Below are positions 10,643 through 39,165 of a DNA stretch of 64,000 nucleotides, piece after piece. How positions within the stretch are numbered: position 1 is the stretch's first letter; each line of letters begins with the position of its first letter. This DNA comes from a virus. The notes below the pieces were generated by a model. It searched no databases, was not told where the DNA came from, and saw nothing but the letters and a program-made list of their open reading frames with translations. A program made the position numbers and the translations under genes. The stretch lies in the IMG/VR virus record IMGVR_UViG_3300009593_000014, positions 21,155 to 85,154 of that record; one strand, given 5' to 3'.

Positions 10643-13600
10643 CTAATCTGCGGTATCTATAGTTAATTTATACCAACCAGTTGTGTTATTGTTGTATACT
10701 TTTGCCTTAACTGTGTACGTTCCTGCAGTTAATTCTCTTGAGATCCAAGCATCCCAACAATTTCCGTCACTTCCGCAGTCATTACCGCAAGAACAACCGT
10801 CATCATCATCTTTTTCTATTAAATTATTGTTGCTATCGTACAGGTAAATGTAAGGATCTCCGTAATCTGCTTCTCCATTGTTAGCATTCCCTGGCCAGCC
10901 ATCACAAGTAAGCTCAGTTTCAGCCAATATGGTTACAGTTGTTGTTTCTGTAATTGTGAAAGTTACTGAGTCCTCGTTGCTGTTGAAGGTCTCAATGTCT
11001 GCAATACAGAAGTCTCCGAACCCTGTCCAGACGGTGTTATTGCCACCTGTTAGTGCGCAATCATTAGACCACGACGAAGTAGAAGATGATGTAGATGTAA
11101 CACTGTATGGATCAGACTCAGTTACTTGAACGTACCCATCACTCCACACAACCGTAGTTATATCTGTATAAGTTGTTACCGTTGTGTCTGTGGTGGTTAT
11201 ATAATCGTGCCAGTATCCATCGGTATCTTCGCTAGTAACCGTATCCGTAGTAGTAGTCGTATTCGTCCCATCCTGTCTCTGTGTCACTGTCGCAGTCCCC
11301 GGAGTCGCACATCCACTCGGTTTGTCCGGTGCTGTCATCGGAATCATCATATTCATACTCTTCGTAGAGTTCATAGTCCTCCTCTGGGTCATCGTATTCG
11401 GATTCGTCATCGAAGTCCCCATCATCATCGGACTCATCGCTCCACTCCCCCTGTTCGTAATCATCGTCCCAATCTGATTCTCCCTCCAGATGCAATCCCG
11501 ATCCGTCGCTATCAGTTCCGTAAACTCCTCCATGTTCACCCCAGTCGTAGTCACTGTCGTGATCTCCGTCGTGGGTTCCCCCCATGTCGTTTCCGTCGTA
11601 ATCTCCCCATTCGTATTCCATGTCTGGATCAGACCAATCGTATTCTCCTTCTCCGTAAAAGTCGTGTATTCCGTCAGTGTCGTAAATATGGTCGTCATCC
11701 ATATCTCCGTCATTGTCCCCCCATTGTCCGTGAAAGTCAGGGTATTCGTCGTAGAGGTACTCGTCGTATTCGGAGTAGTCGTAGTCCATGATCTCATCAT
11801 CAAACTCCTCTCCGTATTCTCCGTACTCACCAGAATCGGGGTCGTAATAGACCCTCCAGCTAAAGGGTCGTCATCACCCCAGTCGTCCCATTCCTCTTCC
11901 TCTAGGTACCACTCTTCATCGTAATCCACTTCATCCCAATACTCATCTTCCCAATACTCATCATCTATCTCCATAAGGATCTCAGTCAAGGACTCTTCAG
12001 GCTCCCAATATTCTTCTTCTTCATATTCTTCAACCCAAGAATCACCAAGCACTTCTTCTAACCTCCCTTCACTTACGGCAATGAAATACTCGGCATCAGT
12101 AGCAACCCAAGCTTCAATTTCATCTTCCTCCTGTACTATTTCCCCAATTTCTTCATCATAATAAACTTCGATAACGAGAGGAGGTGGTTCAAAATCGTCC
12201 TCACTACCTTCCTCTACAATGTAGTCTGTTAAATCAATTTCTATTTCTGCTAACTCCGTACCGTCTTCATCAATGATTCCAATTTCCATTGTTTCAAGCT
12301 CTTCCTCGTTTGTTTCTACATCATCCTCGGAAAATACAACCTCAATCTCTTGCCCCTCGTCTAGTTCAATTTCAGCCTCCAAAGCATCAATAGCAATAGA
12401 AACAGTGGCTTCTGAAACATCTCCAATCTCAAGTGACTCCTCTGAGAAGTTGATCAGGGAGTCTTCTTCGATTAGGAACGGATCATCTGACTTCTCTTCT
12501 TCAAGAGTAGCTTCTACCTGCAGGGATCGTTCTTCATCAAGTATTAGCAGAGAGAATCGATCATTAGATTCTTCTTCAACAATGTCGCTACCTGAAGTGT
12601 TCAATACACCAACATCAGCCGTAAATGTATCTACTGTTGCAGGCAAAGAAACCAATACAGGATCAGATGTGGATGGACCACTAATGAGGTATCTAAATGT
12701 AGCCCCCGGTATTTCATTTAGAAATTCTCCATCATAATAGCCAAGTCTTTGTCCTGTACTGGTCTGAACTTGTAATGTGGCTTGTTTAGAACCCGAAGAA
12801 GCAACTGTAAGTAGTGTTCCTGACTTTGTATCGCCCTCAGTGGGGCAGAAAGGGCAATTAAACGGCGGCTTGCGTGCAGTCATTGGGGTGAGTTCCATTG
12901 ACCCAGCGCCTCCTGACCACGCTGAGGAGGCTTCTGAGGGGTTTGTAGCGGCAAGGGCGTATGTCCACCCAGAATCCGTAACATCTATCCAGCGTTCGCT
13001 TGTAGGCCAGTTAGAGTCATAAATATATATCCTGTAACCAGAGACCGTCTGTTCCACTCTATATGGAGTTACAGCATGCCCTCCTTCGTCAGAATATATA
13101 CCAATAGTAAAACCTGTTGCAGACCCTCCAATAGCAGACTCTTCAAAATCCTCCAAAAGTATCCTAGCTAAATCCATAGGCTCCATTTGTCTGTATACAG
13201 AGGCTCTTTCTTGAACCTCAGGAGCAAACTGTGTAACATACCAAAAAGCAAGTTCAGACATCAAAGCAGGATCATCTTTTACTAGCTGAGACACCTCTTG
13301 CACTTGTTGAAAAGTCTGAATGCTTGACACATCCCCCGAGAGTCTCAGACTCAAAACTGCTAACCCTTCACACAAACCACCCTTCATAGATCTGTTTGCC
13401 TGAGCGATCAACTGCAATATTACAGGGAACGGAGTACATTGGTTATCAACCACGGTCTGACAGACCTGATCGTCACCATACATTCTACGAGCCATATTTA
13501 CTGTTAAGTCAGCGGGAGGCTCTCCACCGCCAAAGTTTTCAAACGAGAATGAATCATCATCTGGAACAAAGGGGATAGCCCAATCCTCTAAGACAACAGA

Positions 13601-13711
13601 TGGATCAGATGTATCTATAGTTGTTGTTGTAGCTTCAGTAGTGCTACTCTTACCTGAGCACCCTGAAAGAATTACACATGTCGCTAGTAACGCAGATAGG
13701 AGTCTTTTCAC
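10643..13711 (-). CDS. large secreted lipoprotein with a papain-like domain and a PPC-like C-terminus
   Basis: 1022 residues. A signal peptide ends in a lipobox (ILSG|Cys18) followed by a Ser/Thr linker, so the protein should be exported and lipid-anchored on an actinobacterial cell. Residues 110-240 have the spacing of a papain-like fold: GGLCEGL (Cys114), EGGHAV (His212) and YDSN (Asp232/Asn234). Residues about 370-640 are extremely acidic, then comes a Thr-rich stretch that looks frame-shifted relative to an acidic alternative frame. The end (GDPYIYLYDS, later LTAGTYTVKAKV) resembles a pre-peptidase C-terminal domain with an inserted Cys/Asp-rich loop. It lies inside the lysis region. Surface exclusion, adhesion or cell-wall roles are possible; none is proven. 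Confidence 0.65.
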   Translation of the reverse strand: MKRLLSALLATCVILSGCSGKSSTTEATTTTIDTSDPSVVLEDWAIPFVPDDDSFSFENFGGGEPPADLTVNMARRMYGDDQVCQTVVDNQCTPFPVILQLIAQANRSMKGGLCEGLAVLSLRLSGDVSSIQTFQQVQEVSQLVKDDPALMSELAFWYVTQFAPEVQERASVYRQMEPMDLARILLEDFEESAIGGSATGFTIGIYSDEGGHAVTPYRVEQTVSGYRIYIYDSNWPTSERWIDVTDSGWTYALAATNPSEASSAWSGGAGSMELTPMTARKPPFNCPFCPTEGDTKSGTLLTVASSGSKQATLQVQTSTGQRLGYYDGEFLNEIPGATFRYLISGPSTSDPVLVSLPATVDTFTADVGVLNTSGSDIVEEESNDRFSLLILDEERSLQVEATLEEEKSDDPFLIEEDSLINFSEESLEIGDVSEATVSIAIDALEAEIELDEGQEIEVVFSEDDVETNEEELETMEIGIIDEDGTELAEIEIDLTDYIVEEGSEDDFEPPPLVIEVYYDEEIGEIVQEEDEIEAWVATDAEYFIAVSEGRLEEVLGDSWVEEYEEEEYWEPEESLTEILMEIDDEYWEDEYWDEVDYDEEWYLEEEEWDDWGDDDPLAGGSITTPILVSTENTERSLMMRSWTTTTPNTTSTSTTNTLTFTDNGGTMTEIWMTTIFTTLTEYTTFTEKENTIGLIQTWNTNGEITTETTWGEPTTEITTVTTTGVNMEEFTELIATDRDCIWRENQIGTMITNRGSGAMSPMMMGTSMTNPNTMTQRRTMNSTKSMNMMIPMTAPDKPSGCATPGTATVTQRQDGTNTTTTTDTVTSEDTDGYWHDYITTTDTTVTTYTDITTVVWSDGYVQVTESDPYSVTSTSSSTSSWSNDCALTGGNNTVWTGFGDFCIADIETFNSNEDSVTFTITETTTVTILAETELTCDGWPGNANNGEADYGDPYIYLYDSNNNLIEKDDDDGCSCGNDCGSDGNCWDAWISRELTAGTYTVKAKVYNNNTTGWYKLTIDTAD
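11229..11850 (-). other. segment with an alternative acidic reading frame inside the lipoprotein gene
   Basis: Within this segment the main frame is Thr/Met-rich, while another minus-strand frame reads as Tyr/Asp/Glu/Gly-rich sequence (for example VYYDPDSGEYGEYGEE) that continues the acidic composition seen just upstream. It stops at about 11229, where the main frame again looks normal. This is what a pair of compensating frameshifts, or a dual-coding segment, would leave. Confidence 0.5.
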
Positions 13712-33293: not shown

Positions 33294-34424
33294 ATGTCTA
33301 TCAATGTTTACCCGATGAGGGATGATCTGCTCAAAGCCTTGACCGAAGGTCAGGCAATATATTGGAACTCATCAACCTACTCTCCAAAAGAGGGCTATGG
33401 TTACGCATACTATAAATACACTCAGGCATTAAACAAGTTAGGAATTCACTGCATAACTCAATCAGACTTTGCACCAGAGCTAATAGATCTCTCTCATATT
33501 GTCAAATACGAAATGCTGTACGATGAAGGTCTTGAGCCTCCTTTGATTAACCACTGCCTACCTGAAATGTACTTACACACTAATTCTTACAATATAGGAA
33601 TGACATACTGGGAGACAGACGCTGTTCCAAATCACTGGATAGATTTTATGTACCGAATGGATGAAATATGGACTTCATCAAAGTATGTAAAGGATGTTTA
33701 CCTAAAACAAAATGTAAACGAAAAGATATTTGACTTCAATCAAGGAATTGATCCAGAGATATATAAAGTAAATTTCAATGAACCAGAAAGAGAACAGTTT
33801 ACTTTTTTATCGTTCGGATCTCCCTCGTCTAGAAAGAATGCTCAATACACATACGATGCATTTATGGAACTCTTCGGGGGTGATGAAAGATATCATCTCA
33901 TAATTAAATCATCTGGACCTTCGGATGTCAGGAATATACAAGAAGGAGTAAACCTAGGTGCTGTAAAGAATAGCTCTCAAGTAACAGTAATTGAAGAAAT
34001 GCTGTCGGAAGAAGAAGTTGCTCAGCTATTAAGAAGCGTGCATTGTTTGGTGTACCCAACATCAGGAGAAGGGTGGGGATTGGTTCCCTATTCCGCAATA
34101 GCCAGCGGGACCCCTACAATATGTACCAACGCTACGGCGTGCGAAGAGTATGCCGAGCTATCAATACCAATAGACTACACATGGAAAGAGCCATGGCAGG
34201 CTGCCGGTGTCTATTCTCATGGTGGGAAGTGGGCAATGCCTGACTTAAATCAACTTAGGGAAAAAATGCAAAGCGTTACTGAAAACTACGATGCATACAA
34301 AAGCATGACTATTAGATCAGCACAGACTTTGCAAAATACACATACTTGGGATAGGGTTGCTTTGAAAATGGGAAAACATTTGGTAGACTCTGGAATTATA
34401 AGCCAAATAAAAGTAGGAAAGTAG
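33294..34424 (+). CDS. GT4-family glycosyltransferase
   Basis: 376 residues, GT-B fold: LSFGSPSSRKNAQYTYDAF near residue 165 and the GT4 signature LVYPTSGEGWGLVPYSAIAS near 250, then HTWDRVA near the end. It is related to the enzyme at 29898-30893. With the aminotransferase-fold protein, CAP59-like transferase and FkbM methyltransferase downstream it forms a plus-strand sugar cluster, probably for a surface glycan or for glycosylating phage or host components. Confidence 0.85.
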   Translation: MSINVYPMRDDLLKALTEGQAIYWNSSTYSPKEGYGYAYYKYTQALNKLGIHCITQSDFAPELIDLSHIVKYEMLYDEGLEPPLINHCLPEMYLHTNSYNIGMTYWETDAVPNHWIDFMYRMDEIWTSSKYVKDVYLKQNVNEKIFDFNQGIDPEIYKVNFNEPEREQFTFLSFGSPSSRKNAQYTYDAFMELFGGDERYHLIIKSSGPSDVRNIQEGVNLGAVKNSSQVTVIEEMLSEEEVAQLLRSVHCLVYPTSGEGWGLVPYSAIASGTPTICTNATACEEYAELSIPIDYTWKEPWQAAGVYSHGGKWAMPDLNQLREKMQSVTENYDAYKSMTIRSAQTLQNTHTWDRVALKMGKHLVDSGIISQIKVGK

Positions 34425-34431
34425 AAAAATT

Positions 34432-35613
34432 ATGAGCAACATTAAATGGCCCCTCATAAACAACACAATAGAAGACAATCAAAAGTCTATAATGGCTGAC
34501 TTCATTATGAACTCAGATCGCTTCACTCAGGGCGAAAAGGTTAAAGAGTTTGAAAAAAAATGGTCTAAGTGGCAAGGTGCAAAACATTCTGTATTTGTTA
34601 ATTCTGGAAGCTCAGCAAACTTAATATTACTAGACGCTATAAAAGAACTCTACTTTCCAGAGAGAACTCCAAACATACTAGTACCTGCATGCACATGGTC
34701 AACAACACTTTCGCCTTTAATTACTTTGGGCTACAATCCTGTATTTTGTGATGTAAGCCTTAGTGACTATGGTTTTGACGTTACTGGTCGAAGCAGCCAG
34801 CCGGGACATCGGGTTGTGAGTGAAGACATAGACATTATATTTTTTACCCATCTACTGGGGCTTCCATCAAACGTTTCTTTGATGAAAAGTCTTTTCCCTA
34901 ACGCAATGGTGCTTGAAGATTGTTGCGAGGCTCATGGTGCATTAGTGAATGGCAATAAAGTTGGAAACCATGGTCAAGGCTCTACTTTTAGTTTTTACTA
35001 CGGACACCACATGACAACAATAGAGGGCGGCATGGTGTCAACAAATAACGACATACTATATGATAAGCTACTAGCAAAAAGATCTCATGGACTCGCTCGG
35101 GAAACTGAGCAACTGAAGTCCGTTAGTAAAAATTATTCAGACATTGACCCGAGATTTCTTTTTTTAACAACAGGATACAATGTCAGGAGTACTGAATTAA
35201 ATGCGGTACTTGGAATACACCAGTTAGACGACCTAGATGAATCCATATCAAAAAGACGTTCAAATTTTATAACATTCCGAACCATACTTCAAGATATTGG
35301 TGACATGTTCTTGTTTCCCAAAACAATTGGGAATAGTTCTTTTGCACTACCTTTCATGTGCAAGGACGTAGATAAAAACAAGCTAGAGTCGTATTTGCAA
35401 TCTCAAGGAATTGAGACCAGACCATTCTTGGCTGGCAATATGCTTCGTCAACCTTTTCTACATTATTTAGATAATGATCCAAAAGACTATCCAAATGCGG
35501 AGTTTTTACATAATAATTGTTTCTACATAGGAAACAATCAACACATCGGACTAAAAGAACTAAACTGGCTGAATGGAGTGCTGCGTGAATTTTTTAATAT
35601 GCACAATAGTTAG
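34432..35613 (+). CDS. DegT/DnrJ-fold PLP sugar enzyme with His in place of catalytic Lys (ColD/RfbH-like)
   Basis: 393 residues with the fold-type I PLP domain: NSGSSANLI (58-66), PACTWSTTLSP (85-95), LEDCCEAHGA (161-170, Asp that binds the pyridine nitrogen). In aminotransferases of this family the next motif holds the Schiff-base Lys; here it reads FSFYYGHHMTTIEGG (186-200), with two His. The sugar 3-dehydratases ColD and RfbH/E1 share this change, so removal of the C3 hydroxyl of a 4-keto sugar is the likely reaction rather than amination. The neighbouring ferredoxin would suit an E1-type electron need. Confidence 0.82.
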   Translation: MSNIKWPLINNTIEDNQKSIMADFIMNSDRFTQGEKVKEFEKKWSKWQGAKHSVFVNSGSSANLILLDAIKELYFPERTPNILVPACTWSTTLSPLITLGYNPVFCDVSLSDYGFDVTGRSSQPGHRVVSEDIDIIFFTHLLGLPSNVSLMKSLFPNAMVLEDCCEAHGALVNGNKVGNHGQGSTFSFYYGHHMTTIEGGMVSTNNDILYDKLLAKRSHGLARETEQLKSVSKNYSDIDPRFLFLTTGYNVRSTELNAVLGIHQLDDLDESISKRRSNFITFRTILQDIGDMFLFPKTIGNSSFALPFMCKDVDKNKLESYLQSQGIETRPFLAGNMLRQPFLHYLDNDPKDYPNAEFLHNNCFYIGNNQHIGLKELNWLNGVLREFFNMHNS

Positions 35614-36292
35614 AAATCGTGCCCAACGACTACCTATGTGGGAAAGTCAACTATCAGAACTAACAAAAATGCGACCCGATGACTCTTTTGAGCTATCTGT
35701 TTACGAAAACGACTCAGATGATGATTCCTTGGCTACTTTGATGTCTTTTGGTTATGAAGGATTTGACGCTGTTCGTATAAAAACCGAAACACTTAACACA
35801 CCATATTTTGGAAGCGTTCAGGACTCAGAAAGAGTGCGACTGCTTGCCAATGCAAGAAACCAATGCTTAGACTATCACAATCTAAAGAAATTTGATAAAA
35901 TAATTTTTGTTGAACCCGATGTTGAATATAAGATACCAGAAGTGTTGGAAATAATTAACCTAGATGCTGACATAGCTTCAGGCAAGACAGTGACCTTCGG
36001 TTCAGATATAGTTTACGACACTTGGGCAACCAGACTAAACTGGCTAGATAAGGAATGGGACAACACATACACCGGATCAGGCTGGATAAAAGTATGGTCA
36101 ACATTTAATGGGTTCTGCGTATACAACGCCGAGCCGTTTTATTTACACAATGCAAGATTTTCAGGCGGGGATTGTGATACAGTACAGATATGTAAAGAAT
36201 TTCAAAACTTAGGGTATAGTGATGTTTACTTCAATATGGACATTGAAATACTTCACCATACTGACAGTACTGAATATCAAATAGGAATATAG
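35573..36292 (+). CDS. CAP59/GT2-like glycosyltransferase
   Basis: About 239 residues; an in-frame GTG at 35585 is an alternative start, and the frame overlaps the previous gene by about 40 bases. NFLICTIVRNRAQRLPMW opens a GT-A type nucleotide-binding domain; IIFVEPDVEY near residue 110 holds a DxD-like acidic site; later FNGFCVYNAEPF and SGGDCDTVQIC resemble CAP59-type mannosyltransferases. It probably adds a sugar made or modified by the neighbouring enzymes. Confidence 0.7.
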   Translation: MECCVNFLICTIVRNRAQRLPMWESQLSELTKMRPDDSFELSVYENDSDDDSLATLMSFGYEGFDAVRIKTETLNTPYFGSVQDSERVRLLANARNQCLDYHNLKKFDKIIFVEPDVEYKIPEVLEIINLDADIASGKTVTFGSDIVYDTWATRLNWLDKEWDNTYTGSGWIKVWSTFNGFCVYNAEPFYLHNARFSGGDCDTVQICKEFQNLGYSDVYFNMDIEILHHTDSTEYQIGI

Positions 36293-36305
36293 AAATGAGG
36301 AGGAA

Positions 36306-37298
36306 ATGATAGATGGGTTGGCTTTACACCCCCGACACTTATCAGTCTGCTCTGGTATCGGGGGAATCGACCTTGGACTTGAAGCAGCACTCGGAATTCG
36401 CACCGTGGGTCACATCGAAAGGGACGCTTTCGCAGCGAGCATTCTCGTGGAGAGGATGGTTGAACAGACCTTGGATTTCGCGCCTATTTGGGACGATATC
36501 AAGACCTTCGATGGCTCAGGATGGAGTGGATGTGTGGACATCCTATCTGCGGGAATCCCATGTCAGTCTTTTTCGCATGCCGGTAACAGGAAGGGAACAG
36601 ATGACCCAAGATGGCTTTGGCCTGACGTTTATAGAATTAGTAAGGACTGCAGGCCGGGCCAGATCTTTATTGAAAACACACCGGGACTTGTCAAAAAAGG
36701 ACTTTATGAAGTTCTCTTCGATCTTGCCGAAATGGGGTACAATGCGGAATGGGGAGTGTTCAACGCAAGTGACGCATCCGCGCCCCATAGAAGACAACGC
36801 TTATTCCTTTTGGCCCACCACAGCGAACTCGACCTACAGCCATGGATTGAACAGGCCAGCGCTTGCACAGAGCTTAGATACAGTGCCATGGGCGACTCCT
36901 ACTGCGAATATCTGGAAAGAGACTGGTCCAAACATAGACTGGGATATGCGAGACCAGAACAGGATAACGAATTTAGCGGTTCAGGCAAAGCTATGGCCTA
37001 CTCCAATCACAGTGGACAGTTTAGGAGGCCATCGTCTGACCGGGAAAAACAAAGACGCAAAAAACATTGGTCTTTCTCTTACGGACGCTTCCCACCTGCA
37101 CGAAACGACGCAGAAGGATGGTCAAGATGGGTCGAACGAGGACTACCTAAACCCATCATTCGTGGAGGCAATGATGGGTCTGCCCATAGGGTGGACAGAC
37201 TTCGGACCCTTGGAAATTCAGTAGTACCACAATGCGTAACATTGGCATATACTGTATTATTAGATAGAATGTCTAGTGAACCACAACCAGTGAGGTAA
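36306..37298 (+). CDS. DNA cytosine-5 methyltransferase
   Basis: 330 residues with the C5-methyltransferase motifs in order: HLSVCSGIGGIDLG (motif I, 11-24), IPCQSF with catalytic Cys86 (motif IV), ENTPG (123-127, usually ENV), HRRQRLF (161-167, motif VIII) and RTLGNSVVPQ near 305 (motif X). It would methylate phage DNA against host restriction. The target-recognition region (about 175-290) is poorly conserved in look. The ATG at 36306 is only 2 bases after AGGAGG. An almost equally long second frame lies inside this gene. Confidence 0.9.
   Translation: MIDGLALHPRHLSVCSGIGGIDLGLEAALGIRTVGHIERDAFAASILVERMVEQTLDFAPIWDDIKTFDGSGWSGCVDILSAGIPCQSFSHAGNRKGTDDPRWLWPDVYRISKDCRPGQIFIENTPGLVKKGLYEVLFDLAEMGYNAEWGVFNASDASAPHRRQRLFLLAHHSELDLQPWIEQASACTELRYSAMGDSYCEYLERDWSKHRLGYARPEQDNEFSGSGKAMAYSNHSGQFRRPSSDREKQRRKKHWSFSYGRFPPARNDAEGWSRWVERGLPKPIIRGGNDGSAHRVDRLRTLGNSVVPQCVTLAYTVLLDRMSSEPQPVR
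36313..37224 (+). CDS. overlapping +1-frame protein of the MxWLYTP / LNPxFVExMMGxPxGWTD family
   Basis: 303 codons open in the +1 frame, entirely inside the methyltransferase gene. The product begins MGWLYTPDT and carries motifs I recognise from a phage/prophage family commonly found near cytosine methyltransferases: SRPSMAQDGVDVWTSYLR, PKWGTMRNGEC near residue 172, two WPTP repeats, and LNPSFVEAMMGLPIGWTDF near the end. The ATG at 36313 is 9 bases from AGGAGG, a better spacing than the outer start. The family's function is unknown to me. The alternative is that it is a chance shadow, but family motifs across the whole length argue against that. Confidence 0.6.
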   Translation: MGWLYTPDTYQSALVSGESTLDLKQHSEFAPWVTSKGTLSQRAFSWRGWLNRPWISRLFGTISRPSMAQDGVDVWTSYLRESHVSLFRMPVTGREQMTQDGFGLTFIELVRTAGRARSLLKTHRDLSKKDFMKFSSILPKWGTMRNGECSTQVTHPRPIEDNAYSFWPTTANSTYSHGLNRPALAQSLDTVPWATPTANIWKETGPNIDWDMRDQNRITNLAVQAKLWPTPITVDSLGGHRLTGKNKDAKNIGLSLTDASHLHETTQKDGQDGSNEDYLNPSFVEAMMGLPIGWTDFGPLEIQ

Positions 37299-37300
37299 AA

Positions 37301-37456
37301 ATGCCAAAAGTAAATACAAAGAAAAAAAAGCCAATCCTTGCACATTGCTTAAGGTGTGGATGGTATATTGGTAGAAAGATACTATCAAGGGACAACAACG
37401 AATGCCCGATATGCGAAGAAGAGATCGAGGAGAATTTTAAATGGATGGAAGAATAG
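37301..37456 (+). CDS. 51-residue zinc-ribbon protein
   Basis: ATG at 37301, 2 bases after the methyltransferase stop. Lys-rich start, then CLRC (residues 16-19) and CPIC (35-38), a short zinc ribbon, with an acidic tail. Overlaps the FkbM start by 16 bases. Possibly a nucleic-acid binding accessory protein. Confidence 0.55.
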   Translation: MPKVNTKKKKPILAHCLRCGWYIGRKILSRDNNECPICEEEIEENFKWMEE

Positions 37457-38085
37457 GGGCATACTTTAATTCAAAATTTGTAGAACTTATTGACCCTAGC
37501 CTTGTAAATACCATATTTGAATTAGGAGCAGGAGATGGGCTAGACGCTATTAAGCTGAGTGAGTTTTATGACGCTGATGTTTGTGGCTTTGAATGCAACG
37601 CCAACCTATTAAAAATATGTACAGATAGGATTCTTGATTTCGATAGGGTTCGTCTAGAGCCTCAAGCAGTCTGGAGCGAAACAAAGATAATACCTTACTA
37701 TCCAGTCATTAACGGAAACGACTCTGCTTCGTCTTGCTTCATGGCGGCTGATGCCTATCCATACGAACACTATATACAAGAAGAAACAACAGTTGAGGCA
37801 ATAGCCCTAATGGACTTCATAGATAGTACAGATATCAAACCAGACATGCTGTGCATCGATCTTCAGGGGGCAGAAGAGCATGCGCTCATAGGTATGGGAC
37901 AGTACTTGGAAGATGTAAAGTATATAATAACAGAAGGACAGACCTCCTGCATGTATCACGGAGCATCAACAATCTTTGATATAGGACACCTACTGACTCA
38001 GTGCGGTTTTGTAATGAAACACTCCGAGTCAGTAAACGAATGGTACGGAGATTATTTATTTGTAAACGAAGAGAAAGTGAATTAA
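37441..38085 (+). CDS. FkbM-family SAM methyltransferase
   Basis: 214 residues. FELGAGDGLDAIKLSE (about 22-37) is the SAM-binding loop, GFECNA the acidic end of strand 2, and IKPDMLCIDLQGAEEHAL near 145 is the characteristic FkbM motif IV region. These enzymes methylate sugar or polyketide hydroxyls. With the glycosyltransferases upstream it probably methylates a glycan, a common way to mask or alter surface sugars. Confidence 0.85.
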   Translation: MDGRIGAYFNSKFVELIDPSLVNTIFELGAGDGLDAIKLSEFYDADVCGFECNANLLKICTDRILDFDRVRLEPQAVWSETKIIPYYPVINGNDSASSCFMAADAYPYEHYIQEETTVEAIALMDFIDSTDIKPDMLCIDLQGAEEHALIGMGQYLEDVKYIITEGQTSCMYHGASTIFDIGHLLTQCGFVMKHSESVNEWYGDYLFVNEEKVN

Positions 38086-38086
38086 C

Positions 38087-38419
38087 ATGGAAGATATAAC
38101 ACACCCAGAAAATAATAACATTTCAAGAAAAGACGGAAGTCAATTCTGGTATGAACTTAGCGAAGCCAATCCTGATGCCATTCTTTTTGATGGACCGGGC
38201 GATGATGATTTTTTTGATTCATGCATCGTAGGTTACGCTTGGAGAATAAATATGGAACCTGTTGTTGTTTATGATGAAGAAAAAATGATAGAAGTAATGA
38301 TGTTTGAAGGAGAGCTATCCTATGAAGAAGCAGTCGAATATTTATCTTTTAATACTTTTGGCAGTTGGTTTGGAGATGGAACTCCTCTTATATTGAGATC
38401 ATCAAAGAATGTACTGTAA
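38087..38419 (+). CDS. acidic protein of unknown function
   Basis: 110 residues, Asp/Glu-rich (ILFDGPGDDDFFDS near residue 36). Its stop overlaps the start of the DpdA-like gene as TAATG, so the two are translationally linked. No family recognised. It might be a partner of the transglycosylase. Confidence 0.55.
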   Translation: MEDITHPENNNISRKDGSQFWYELSEANPDAILFDGPGDDDFFDSCIVGYAWRINMEPVVVYDEEKMIEVMMFEGELSYEEAVEYLSFNTFGSWFGDGTPLILRSSKNVL

Positions 38420-39165
38420 TGAAGGAAGCGGAGTTTTTCTTAGGCTGCCCCGAGCCTTATTGGTTGCGTAGAGATGATGTCACTGGTCCCTTCTTTGTGT
38501 CCAGACCGAGATTAGCAAGGCTTAAGAATCTTCATAAATCCAAACACAAATGGGCACTAGATTCAGGCGGGTTTACGCAGTTACATCAGCATGGGGCTTG
38601 GACAATCTCCTCGCAAGAATATGCCAACTTTGTAAAAAGATGTGACGACGAGATTGGCAATCTAGAATGGGTAGCGCCACAAGACTGGATGTGTGAAGAA
38701 ACAGCACTTCGTAAGAGTGGGTTAACCGTTAAGGAGCATCAAGATCGAACGGTTGATAACTTCTTAGATCTTAGACAAAAACTAGGCTCACTTGTTATTC
38801 CAGTCCTTCAGGGGTGGGATCGTGATGATTATCTAAAGTGCTGTGATTTATACGAGAAAGCCGGTGTGGATCTATCTTTAGAAAATGTTATAGGCTTAGG
38901 AAGCGTCTGCAGAAGGAATGCAGACAAAGAAATATCTGAGATAATCGACACTCTGCAGCCACTTAATCTTCACGGTTTTGGAATTAAAGGAAAATCCTAT
39001 GTAGACAACTACAATAAATTAGTATCTGCAGACTCAATGGCTTGGTCATTTACCGCTAGGCATTCAGATCCATTGCCCAACTGTAGCCATAGGAAATGCA
39101 GTTGGTGCTATGAATATGCAGACCTTTGGAGGGGTCGGATACTGAGTAGACTTGCGCCTGTTTGA
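38419..39165 (+). CDS. DpdA-like (TGT-fold) DNA transglycosylase
   Basis: 248 residues from the ATG at 38419. ALDSGGFTQL near residue 44 matches the DSGGFQ active-site loop of tRNA-guanine transglycosylases; APQDWMCEE near 89 and VIPVLQGWDRDDY near 130 follow as in phage DpdA proteins; CSHRKCSWCYE near 222 gives the zinc ligands. DpdA enzymes exchange guanine in DNA for a 7-deazaguanine base, protecting phage DNA from restriction. No preQ0 synthesis genes (folE, queD, queE) are in the window, so the base would come from the host or from genes elsewhere. Confidence 0.78.
   Translation: MKEAEFFLGCPEPYWLRRDDVTGPFFVSRPRLARLKNLHKSKHKWALDSGGFTQLHQHGAWTISSQEYANFVKRCDDEIGNLEWVAPQDWMCEETALRKSGLTVKEHQDRTVDNFLDLRQKLGSLVIPVLQGWDRDDYLKCCDLYEKAGVDLSLENVIGLGSVCRRNADKEISEIIDTLQPLNLHGFGIKGKSYVDNYNKLVSADSMAWSFTARHSDPLPNCSHRKCSWCYEYADLWRGRILSRLAPV

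What the first reader, a model, noticed from the sequence alone, without database searches (positions are those of the whole stretch)
36306..37298. Two full-length proteins from one stretch of DNA: cytosine methyltransferase and an overprinted +1-frame protein
The outer frame has all C5-methyltransferase motifs. The +1 frame is open for 303 codons inside it and encodes a protein with family motifs (MGWLYTP, WGTMRNGEC, two WPTP, LNPSFVEAMMGLPIGWTDF) that I recognise from separate phage proteins near methyltransferases. AGGAGG is 9 bases from the inner ATG but 2 from the outer. In the poorly conserved target-recognition part of the methyltransferase the inner frame is the one with strong motifs, so constraint seems to switch frames. 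Same-strand overlap of over 900 bases is rare.
Basis: partly seen in the sequence, partly recalled or inferred. Interest (0 to 1): 0.92.

Follow-up and report, generated by a model that had tools for sequence, protein, structure and literature searches.

The report
Two-part DNA methyltransferase in overlapping frames
One stretch of a phage genome is read in two frames from two adjacent start codons, and the two proteins look like the two halves (catalytic part and DNA-recognition part) of a single DNA-methylating enzyme; the pairing is widespread in phages, but its general type was already known from one bacterial enzyme.

Summary
The outer frame (36306-37298, 330 aa) is a C5-cytosine methyltransferase with motifs I-VIII and X. 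The +1 frame (36313-37224, 303 aa) is a genuine second gene. None of 50,000 synonymous recodings left the +1 frame open for 303 codons. In about 320 related loci the inner protein almost always lies in +1 of a methyltransferase, over up to about 1.4 kb. In 70 homologous pairs constraint switches frames: the outer frame dominates over motifs I-VIII, the inner over the recognition/motif IX part. Control genes show no such pattern.

The inner protein is not an unrelated overprinted protein. It is most likely the beta subunit of a split methyltransferase: alpha is the catalytic large domain (I-VIII + X); beta carries the target-recognition domain and motif IX. Relatives swap parts between frames: motif X moves into beta while alpha stops after motif VIII, or motif IX sits in alpha just before motif X.

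This is the architecture described for M.EcoHK31I. New here: beta extends to alpha's start, the two starts share one ribosome-binding site, motif X is mobile between frames, and the arrangement is widespread in phages. No beta without alpha was found. Expression and methylation are untested.

The parts
36298..36303 (+). Shine-Dalgarno AGGAGG serving both starts (2 nt to alpha ATG, 9 nt to beta ATG)
   Evidence: sequence; in 88 dereplicated relatives with an SD-like site the commonest spacing is 4 nt to alpha and 8 nt to beta
36306..37298 (+). alpha subunit: C5-cytosine methyltransferase catalytic (large) domain, motifs I-VIII and X, 330 aa
   Evidence: PF00145 6.8e-34, PHROG_363 2e-59; model pLDDT 77 matches M.HhaI/M.HaeIII over about 170-186 columns only
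36313..37224 (+). beta subunit: +1-frame protein, 303 aa, recognition-domain part plus motif IX
   Evidence: PHROG_1008 'DNA methyltransferase' 3.6e-20; +1 overlap in about 320 loci; frame-specific constraint
36339..36374 (+). motif I (outer frame, LSVCSGIGGIDL)
   Evidence: translation, alignment A4
36552..36596 (+). motif IV with catalytic Cys86 (GIPCQSFSHAGNRKG); Cys codon 36561-36563
   Evidence: invariant G83, P85, C86, S90 in 63 relatives
36666..36689 (+). motif VI (FIENTPGL)
   Evidence: invariant E123, N124
36780..36815 (+). motif VIII (APHRRQRLFLLA)
   Evidence: invariant H161, R163, R165
36808..37122 (+). inner-frame recognition-domain region with WPTT/WATP/WPTP repeats; the outer frame here is a poorly conserved, low-confidence linker
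   Evidence: constraint dominated by inner frame; outer model pLDDT mostly below 50 for residues 194-259
37147..37203 (+). motif IX equivalent in inner frame (LNPSFVEAMMGLPIGWTDF)
   Evidence: near-invariant L279, N280, P281, V284, E285, M288, G289, P291, W294; HHalign places it on canonical motif IX RLTPRECARLMGFPD; in the MTase frame in L041/L045/L049
37197..37265 (+). motif X in outer frame (RLRTLGNSVVPQCVTLAYTVLLD)
   Evidence: invariant G303, near-invariant N304, P308; found in the beta frame in L104, L230, L258, L323, L349

Best explanation
A two-subunit C5-cytosine DNA methyltransferase encoded by two almost fully overlapping genes. One ribosome-binding site feeds two adjacent start codons (36306 and 36313). 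Frame 0 yields alpha, the SAM-binding catalytic large domain (motifs I-VIII and X). Frame +1 yields beta, which carries the target-recognition domain and motif IX. Together they would form one methyltransferase that modifies the phage's own DNA, probably to evade host restriction. Shown by sequence: both frames are coding, the motifs are divided between them, and relatives exchange parts between frames. Inferred: that both proteins are translated, that they form a complex, the methylation, and its biological role. The N-terminal half of beta, which overlaps motifs I-VIII, is under modest but detectable protein constraint; its job is not known and is most likely an extension that helps beta dock on alpha.
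For: Chance excluded: 0 of 50,000 recodings; over 147 dereplicated relatives the +1 frame of motifs I-VIII has 42 stops against 380 expected, 133 loci with none, while the +2 frame has 1027. Universality: 324 inner hits in +1 of an MTase, including loci fetched by the outer protein alone. Constraint, 70 pairs: 5' half outer dNN/dSN 0.25, inner dNN/dNS 0.60 and dSN/dSS 0.45; 3' half outer 0.65, inner 0.36. Control of 54 flanking single-gene pairs: sham +1 frame 0.75 and 0.75. Window against its closest relative L079: differences by outer codon position 34/26/44 in the 5' part and 46/34/29 in the 3' part. Domain complementarity: the alpha model matches only the large domain of M.HhaI, and the region between VIII and X is largely low-confidence. 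Part exchange: 245 loci have IX in +1 and X in frame 0; L104, L230, L258, L323 and L349 have IX and X in beta, with alpha ending 8-11 codons after motif VIII in four of them and 50 in L258; L041/L045/L049 have IX in frame with X in alpha. Paired starts: 61 of 88 are 4 nt apart, sharing an SD. Literature: M.EcoHK31I large subunit I-VIII and X, small subunit IX; M.AquI I-VIII / IX-X (PMC3404938).
Against: No expression or activity data. The beta model is poor (pLDDT 54, only the motif IX helix confident), and beta has no Pfam, NCBIfam or PDB match, so its recognition-domain role rests on position, constraint and motif exchange rather than a detected fold. The HHalign hit to motif IX is short and weak (E 0.0076, probability 5%). 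The cited paper places the predicted TRD of M.EcoHK31I in the larger subunit, unlike my assignment here. The 70 pairs are not fully independent, and SS sites are few and near saturation in the 5' half.
Confidence: 0.87

Rival explanations
1. Alpha is a complete, self-sufficient methyltransferase with a degenerate recognition region, and beta is an accessory protein with another function (for example a specificity modifier or an inhibitor of host restriction) that happens to be overprinted.
For: Alpha has all catalytic motifs plus X; the N-terminal half of beta is constrained without a known function.
Against: Alpha lacks an identifiable recognition domain and motif IX, and its region between VIII and X evolves almost freely (outer dNS/dSS 0.72 against 0.24 in control genes). 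In L104 and L349 motif X itself moves into beta while alpha ends after motif VIII, leaving alpha incomplete. No beta without alpha was found.
Confidence: 0.07
2. One polypeptide is made by programmed frameshifting: the ribosome shifts to +1 after motif VIII and back before motif X, rebuilding a monomeric methyltransferase.
For: The order I-VIII (frame 0), TRD-IX (+1), X (0) is that of a monomer read through two shifts.
Against: Both frames are open throughout, with no stop forcing a shift. Beta has its own start next to alpha's with a shared SD in most relatives, and +1 stops are avoided upstream of any shift point (42 against 380). In Firecracker alpha and beta are annotated as two genes with separate starts. 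I did not scan for slippery sequences.
Confidence: 0.03
3. The inner frame is a non-coding shadow: an open +1 frame caused by codon bias and by conservation of the outer protein.
For: No inner homologue without an overlapping outer gene was found; N-terminal near-invariant inner residues lie over outer motifs.
Against: Inner-frame constraint exceeds the outer in the 3' half and exceeds the sham-frame control in both halves; stop avoidance 9-fold; motif IX is conserved where the outer frame is not.
Confidence: 0.02

Closest known systems
M.EcoHK31I (two-polypeptide C5-methyltransferase, YGGCCR; Lee et al. 1995 NAR 23:103, as summarised in PMC3404938)
   Same: Two polypeptides; large subunit with motifs I-VIII and X, small subunit with motif IX. 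From my own memory, not checked here: its beta gene is nested in alpha in another frame.
   Different: Beta here is 303 aa rather than about 176 aa (memory), runs from alpha's start nearly to its end, shares an SD with alpha, and seems to carry the recognition domain as well, whereas the cited summary places the predicted TRD in the large subunit. Sequence homology to M.EcoHK31I could not be tested.
M.AquI (two-polypeptide C5-methyltransferase, CYCGRG)
   Same: Natural split between motif VIII and the recognition domain. The Firecracker gp6/gp5 pair, L323, L104 and L230 show this division (beta with TRD, IX and X).
   Different: In the window motif X stays in alpha, so the split follows structural domains instead of linear order; the overlap is 912 nt.
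Paenibacillus larvae phage overlapping 'DNA cytosine methyltransferase' genes (e.g. Bloom gp56/gp57)
   Same: Two annotated overlapping genes, beta in +1, PHROG_1008-type.
   Different: Beta is shorter (234 aa) and starts about 200 nt into the annotated alpha; about 27% identical to the window's beta.
Monomeric C5-MTases (M.HhaI, M.HaeIII, Dcm-type)
   Same: Alpha matches their large domain; motif order is the same if both frames are read.
   Different: One polypeptide with TRD and motif IX in the same frame.

Membership tests
C5-cytosine DNA methyltransferase (PF00145) | Motifs I, IV (PC), VI (ENV/ENx), VIII (QRRxR-like), X with catalytic Cys | tested here: met
   PF00145 6.8e-34; invariant or near-invariant G17, P85, C86, E123, N124, R163, R165, G303 in 63 relatives; M.HhaI fold match E 3e-14
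C5-cytosine DNA methyltransferase (PF00145) | Motif IX and recognition domain in the same polypeptide | tested here: not met
   Motif IX-like LNPSFVEAMMGLPIGW is in the +1 frame; linker in alpha low-confidence
M.EcoHK31I-type split C5-MTase | Alpha has I-VIII and X; beta has IX | tested here: met
   Motif placement in the window and in 245 loci; definition from PMC3404938
M.EcoHK31I-type split C5-MTase | Both polypeptides needed for methylation | not testable with these tools
   needs expression and an activity assay
M.EcoHK31I-type split C5-MTase | Sequence homology to M.EcoHK31I alpha and beta | not tested
   The M.EcoHK31I sequences and primary paper were not available
M.AquI-type split C5-MTase | Alpha I-VIII, beta IX and X | tested here: not met
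   Motif X is in frame 0 in the window; met in relatives L104, L230, L258, L323, L349
De novo overprinted gene (unrelated function) | New-frame protein unrelated to the host protein's function | tested here: not met
   Beta's C-terminal part is interchangeable in position with motif IX/X of monomer-like and M.AquI-like relatives; the N-terminal half could be such an extension

The most novel reading that the evidence does not exclude
A large, previously unrecognised class of phage enzymes in which the two structural domains of one methyltransferase are encoded on the same DNA in different frames over their whole length. The N-terminal half of beta would be a de novo overprinted domain with its own role, and motif X has moved between frames several times, giving a natural system for studying how a protein splits into overlapping genes.
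Probability: 0.4. Interest if true: 0.8.

Novelty: new variant of a known kind. Interest (0 to 1): 0.62.

Why it matters
It shows that near-complete same-strand overlap of two constrained genes (912 nt here, up to about 1.4 kb in relatives) is the normal state of a widespread phage enzyme family rather than a curiosity. It explains a common phage protein family (PHROG_1008) as the missing half of a methyltransferase. It also exposes a systematic annotation error: in the public records inspected, gene callers usually kept alpha or beta and dropped the other. The relatives with motif X or IX in different frames make the evolution of overlapping genes and of split enzymes directly testable.

Tried and rejected
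Chance open frame: rejected. Shadow of outer conservation: rejected with a control for the method, which showed that the measures sit at about 0.75 rather than 1 in single genes, so raw values below 1 are not evidence by themselves. Unrelated overprinted protein: rejected on motif exchange between frames. Programmed double frameshift: judged unlikely, not excluded by experiment. Beta fold: AlphaFold model too poor (pLDDT 54) to search, so no fold search was made for it. PDB sequence search with the beta profile: nothing. Pfam/NCBIfam/PADLOC for beta: nothing. HHalign of beta against canonical MTases: weak, but aligned exactly on motif IX. Plasmid search with the window's beta: one weak hit; with L170 beta, eight plasmid records. 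The primary M.EcoHK31I paper is not held; literature searches found no description of this family as overlapping genes in phages, but the library is only part of the literature.

Full report
OBSERVATION. The outer ORF (36306-37298, 330 aa) and the +1 ORF (36313-37224, 303 aa) are present as described and share 912 nt. AGGAGG at 36298-36303 lies 2 nt before the outer ATG and 9 nt before the inner ATG. Keeping the outer protein and recoding it synonymously with the phage's codon usage, none of 50,000 sequences had a +1 frame open for 303 codons (mean 88, maximum 254); within-gene synonymous shuffles gave none of 20,000. The 24 other genes of at least 200 codons in the window have at most 105 open +1 codons.

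FAMILIES. The outer protein is a C5-cytosine methyltransferase (PF00145 6.8e-34; PHROG_363 2e-59). The inner protein has no Pfam, NCBIfam, PADLOC or PDB match but belongs to PHROG_1008, annotated 'DNA methyltransferase' (3.6e-20; 75 of 76 members of its alignment match it).

RELATIVES. Scans of viral and genome contigs with inner and outer proteins gave about 320 loci. Profile searches of all frames found the inner family in frame +1 of the methyltransferase in 324 cases, in the same ORF in 12, in +2 once, and never without an overlapping outer frame. This includes 102 loci fetched with the outer protein or its alignment rather than the inner one, though only the best hits are listed. Overlaps of translated ORFs reach 1428 nt (L075). 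The closest relative, L079, is 61% identical in the inner protein. Public records are inconsistent: both genes are annotated in Bloom and Firecracker, alpha only in ABMM1, Yong-M2-251 and others, beta only, as 'hypothetical protein', in DosHalletts, Vibrio 1.291.O and phPA-G although an open alpha frame is there.

CONSTRAINT. In a +1 overlap, outer codon position 3 is inner position 2 and outer position 1 is inner position 3. Window against L079: differences at outer positions 1/2/3 are 34/26/44 over motifs I-VIII and 46/34/29 over the recognition part. Pooled over 70 pairs: 0.158/0.088/0.290 in the 5' part and 0.304/0.155/0.198 in the 3' part. OLGenie-like ratios: 5' outer dNN/dSN 0.25 (0.23-0.27), inner dNN/dNS 0.60 (0.56-0.64), inner dSN/dSS 0.45 (0.39-0.51); 3' outer 0.65 (0.59-0.71), inner 0.36 (0.32-0.40). 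The control matters: in 54 pairs of ordinary flanking genes the real frame gives 0.24 and the sham +1 frame 0.75 (0.64-0.82) and 0.75 (0.67-0.86), not 1. Against that baseline the inner frame is strongly constrained in the 3' part and modestly but detectably in the 5' part. In 147 dereplicated relatives the +1 frame over motifs I-VIII has 42 stops against 380 expected from synonymous shuffles; 133 loci have none, while the +2 frame has 1027 stops.

WHAT IT IS. Across 63 relatives the outer frame keeps motifs I, IV, VI, VIII and X; between VIII and X it is poorly conserved, and its model is largely low-confidence there (pLDDT mostly under 50 for residues 194-259, with short better patches). The confident part matches only the large domain of M.HhaI and M.HaeIII, over about 170-186 columns. 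The inner frame's most conserved element, LNPxFVExMMGxPxGWT, falls where motif IX should be, directly upstream of outer-frame motif X; HHalign puts it on canonical motif IX (RLTPRECARLMGFPD), though weakly (E 0.0076).

PART EXCHANGE. Relatives divide the same parts differently. 245 loci have IX in +1 and X in frame 0, like the window. In L104, L230, L323 and L349 (Firecracker gp6/gp5) alpha stops 8-11 codons after motif VIII and beta carries TRD, IX and X; in L258 alpha stops 50 codons after. In L041, L045 and L049 the IX-like element is in frame with X in the outer protein, while in L041 and L045 a shorter +1 frame still carries the LPTP recognition region. Whichever frame holds them, the sum is one methyltransferase. 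This is the main reason for reading the inner protein as a subunit of the same enzyme rather than an unrelated overprint.

STARTS. In 139 of 154 dereplicated loci the +1 frame is open to within 60 nt of alpha's start. Of 88 with an SD-like site and paired starts, 61 have the starts exactly 4 nt apart; the commonest SD spacings are 4 nt to alpha and 8 nt to beta. The window has the 7-nt variant (2 and 9). One ribosome-binding site therefore probably serves both (inference).

COMPARISON. C5-MTases made of two polypeptides are known: M.AquI (I-VIII / IX-X) and M.EcoHK31I (I-VIII and X / IX) (PMC3404938). [quoted passage not shown] That M.EcoHK31I's beta gene is nested in alpha is my recollection; the primary paper was not available. 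The window's pair works like M.EcoHK31I; sequence membership was not tested. Differences: full-length beta, paired starts, recognition region apparently in beta, mobile motif X and wide phage distribution.

LIMITS. No expression, complex or methylation data. The beta model is poor (pLDDT 54). The role of beta's N-terminal half is unknown. Literature searches found no description of this family as overlapping genes, but only open-licence papers are held.

Noticed in passing
window 38365-39165 (+): DpdA (DeoxyPurine in DNA protein A, PF23859 7.9e-73), a 7-deazaguanine DNA-insertion enzyme, about 1 kb downstream of the methyltransferase pair: the phage may carry two kinds of DNA modification.
   Followed up: partly
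window 33294-36292 and 37441-38085 (+): Glycosyltransferase, DegT aminotransferase, CAP59-like mannosyltransferase and an FkbM-type methyltransferase flank the pair: a sugar-modification cassette on the strand opposite the structural genes.
   Followed up: partly
L073, L074, L104, L230 (inner frame): The beta recognition region holds a variable number of [WL]PTPxxxD-like units, with beta length from about 160 to 475 aa, which looks like modular gain and loss of recognition segments.
   Followed up: no
window 10643-13711 (-): A 1022-aa gene without PHROG match has a 212-codon open run in its +2 frame; probably bias, not examined.
   Followed up: no
L349-L355, L055: Public phage records mostly annotate only one partner of the overlapping pair (alpha or beta), so half of the enzyme is missing from their annotation.
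   Followed up: partly
L056 2495-2788: Alpha frame is interrupted after 97 aa while beta stays open; sequencing error or a broken alpha, not resolved.
   Followed up: no
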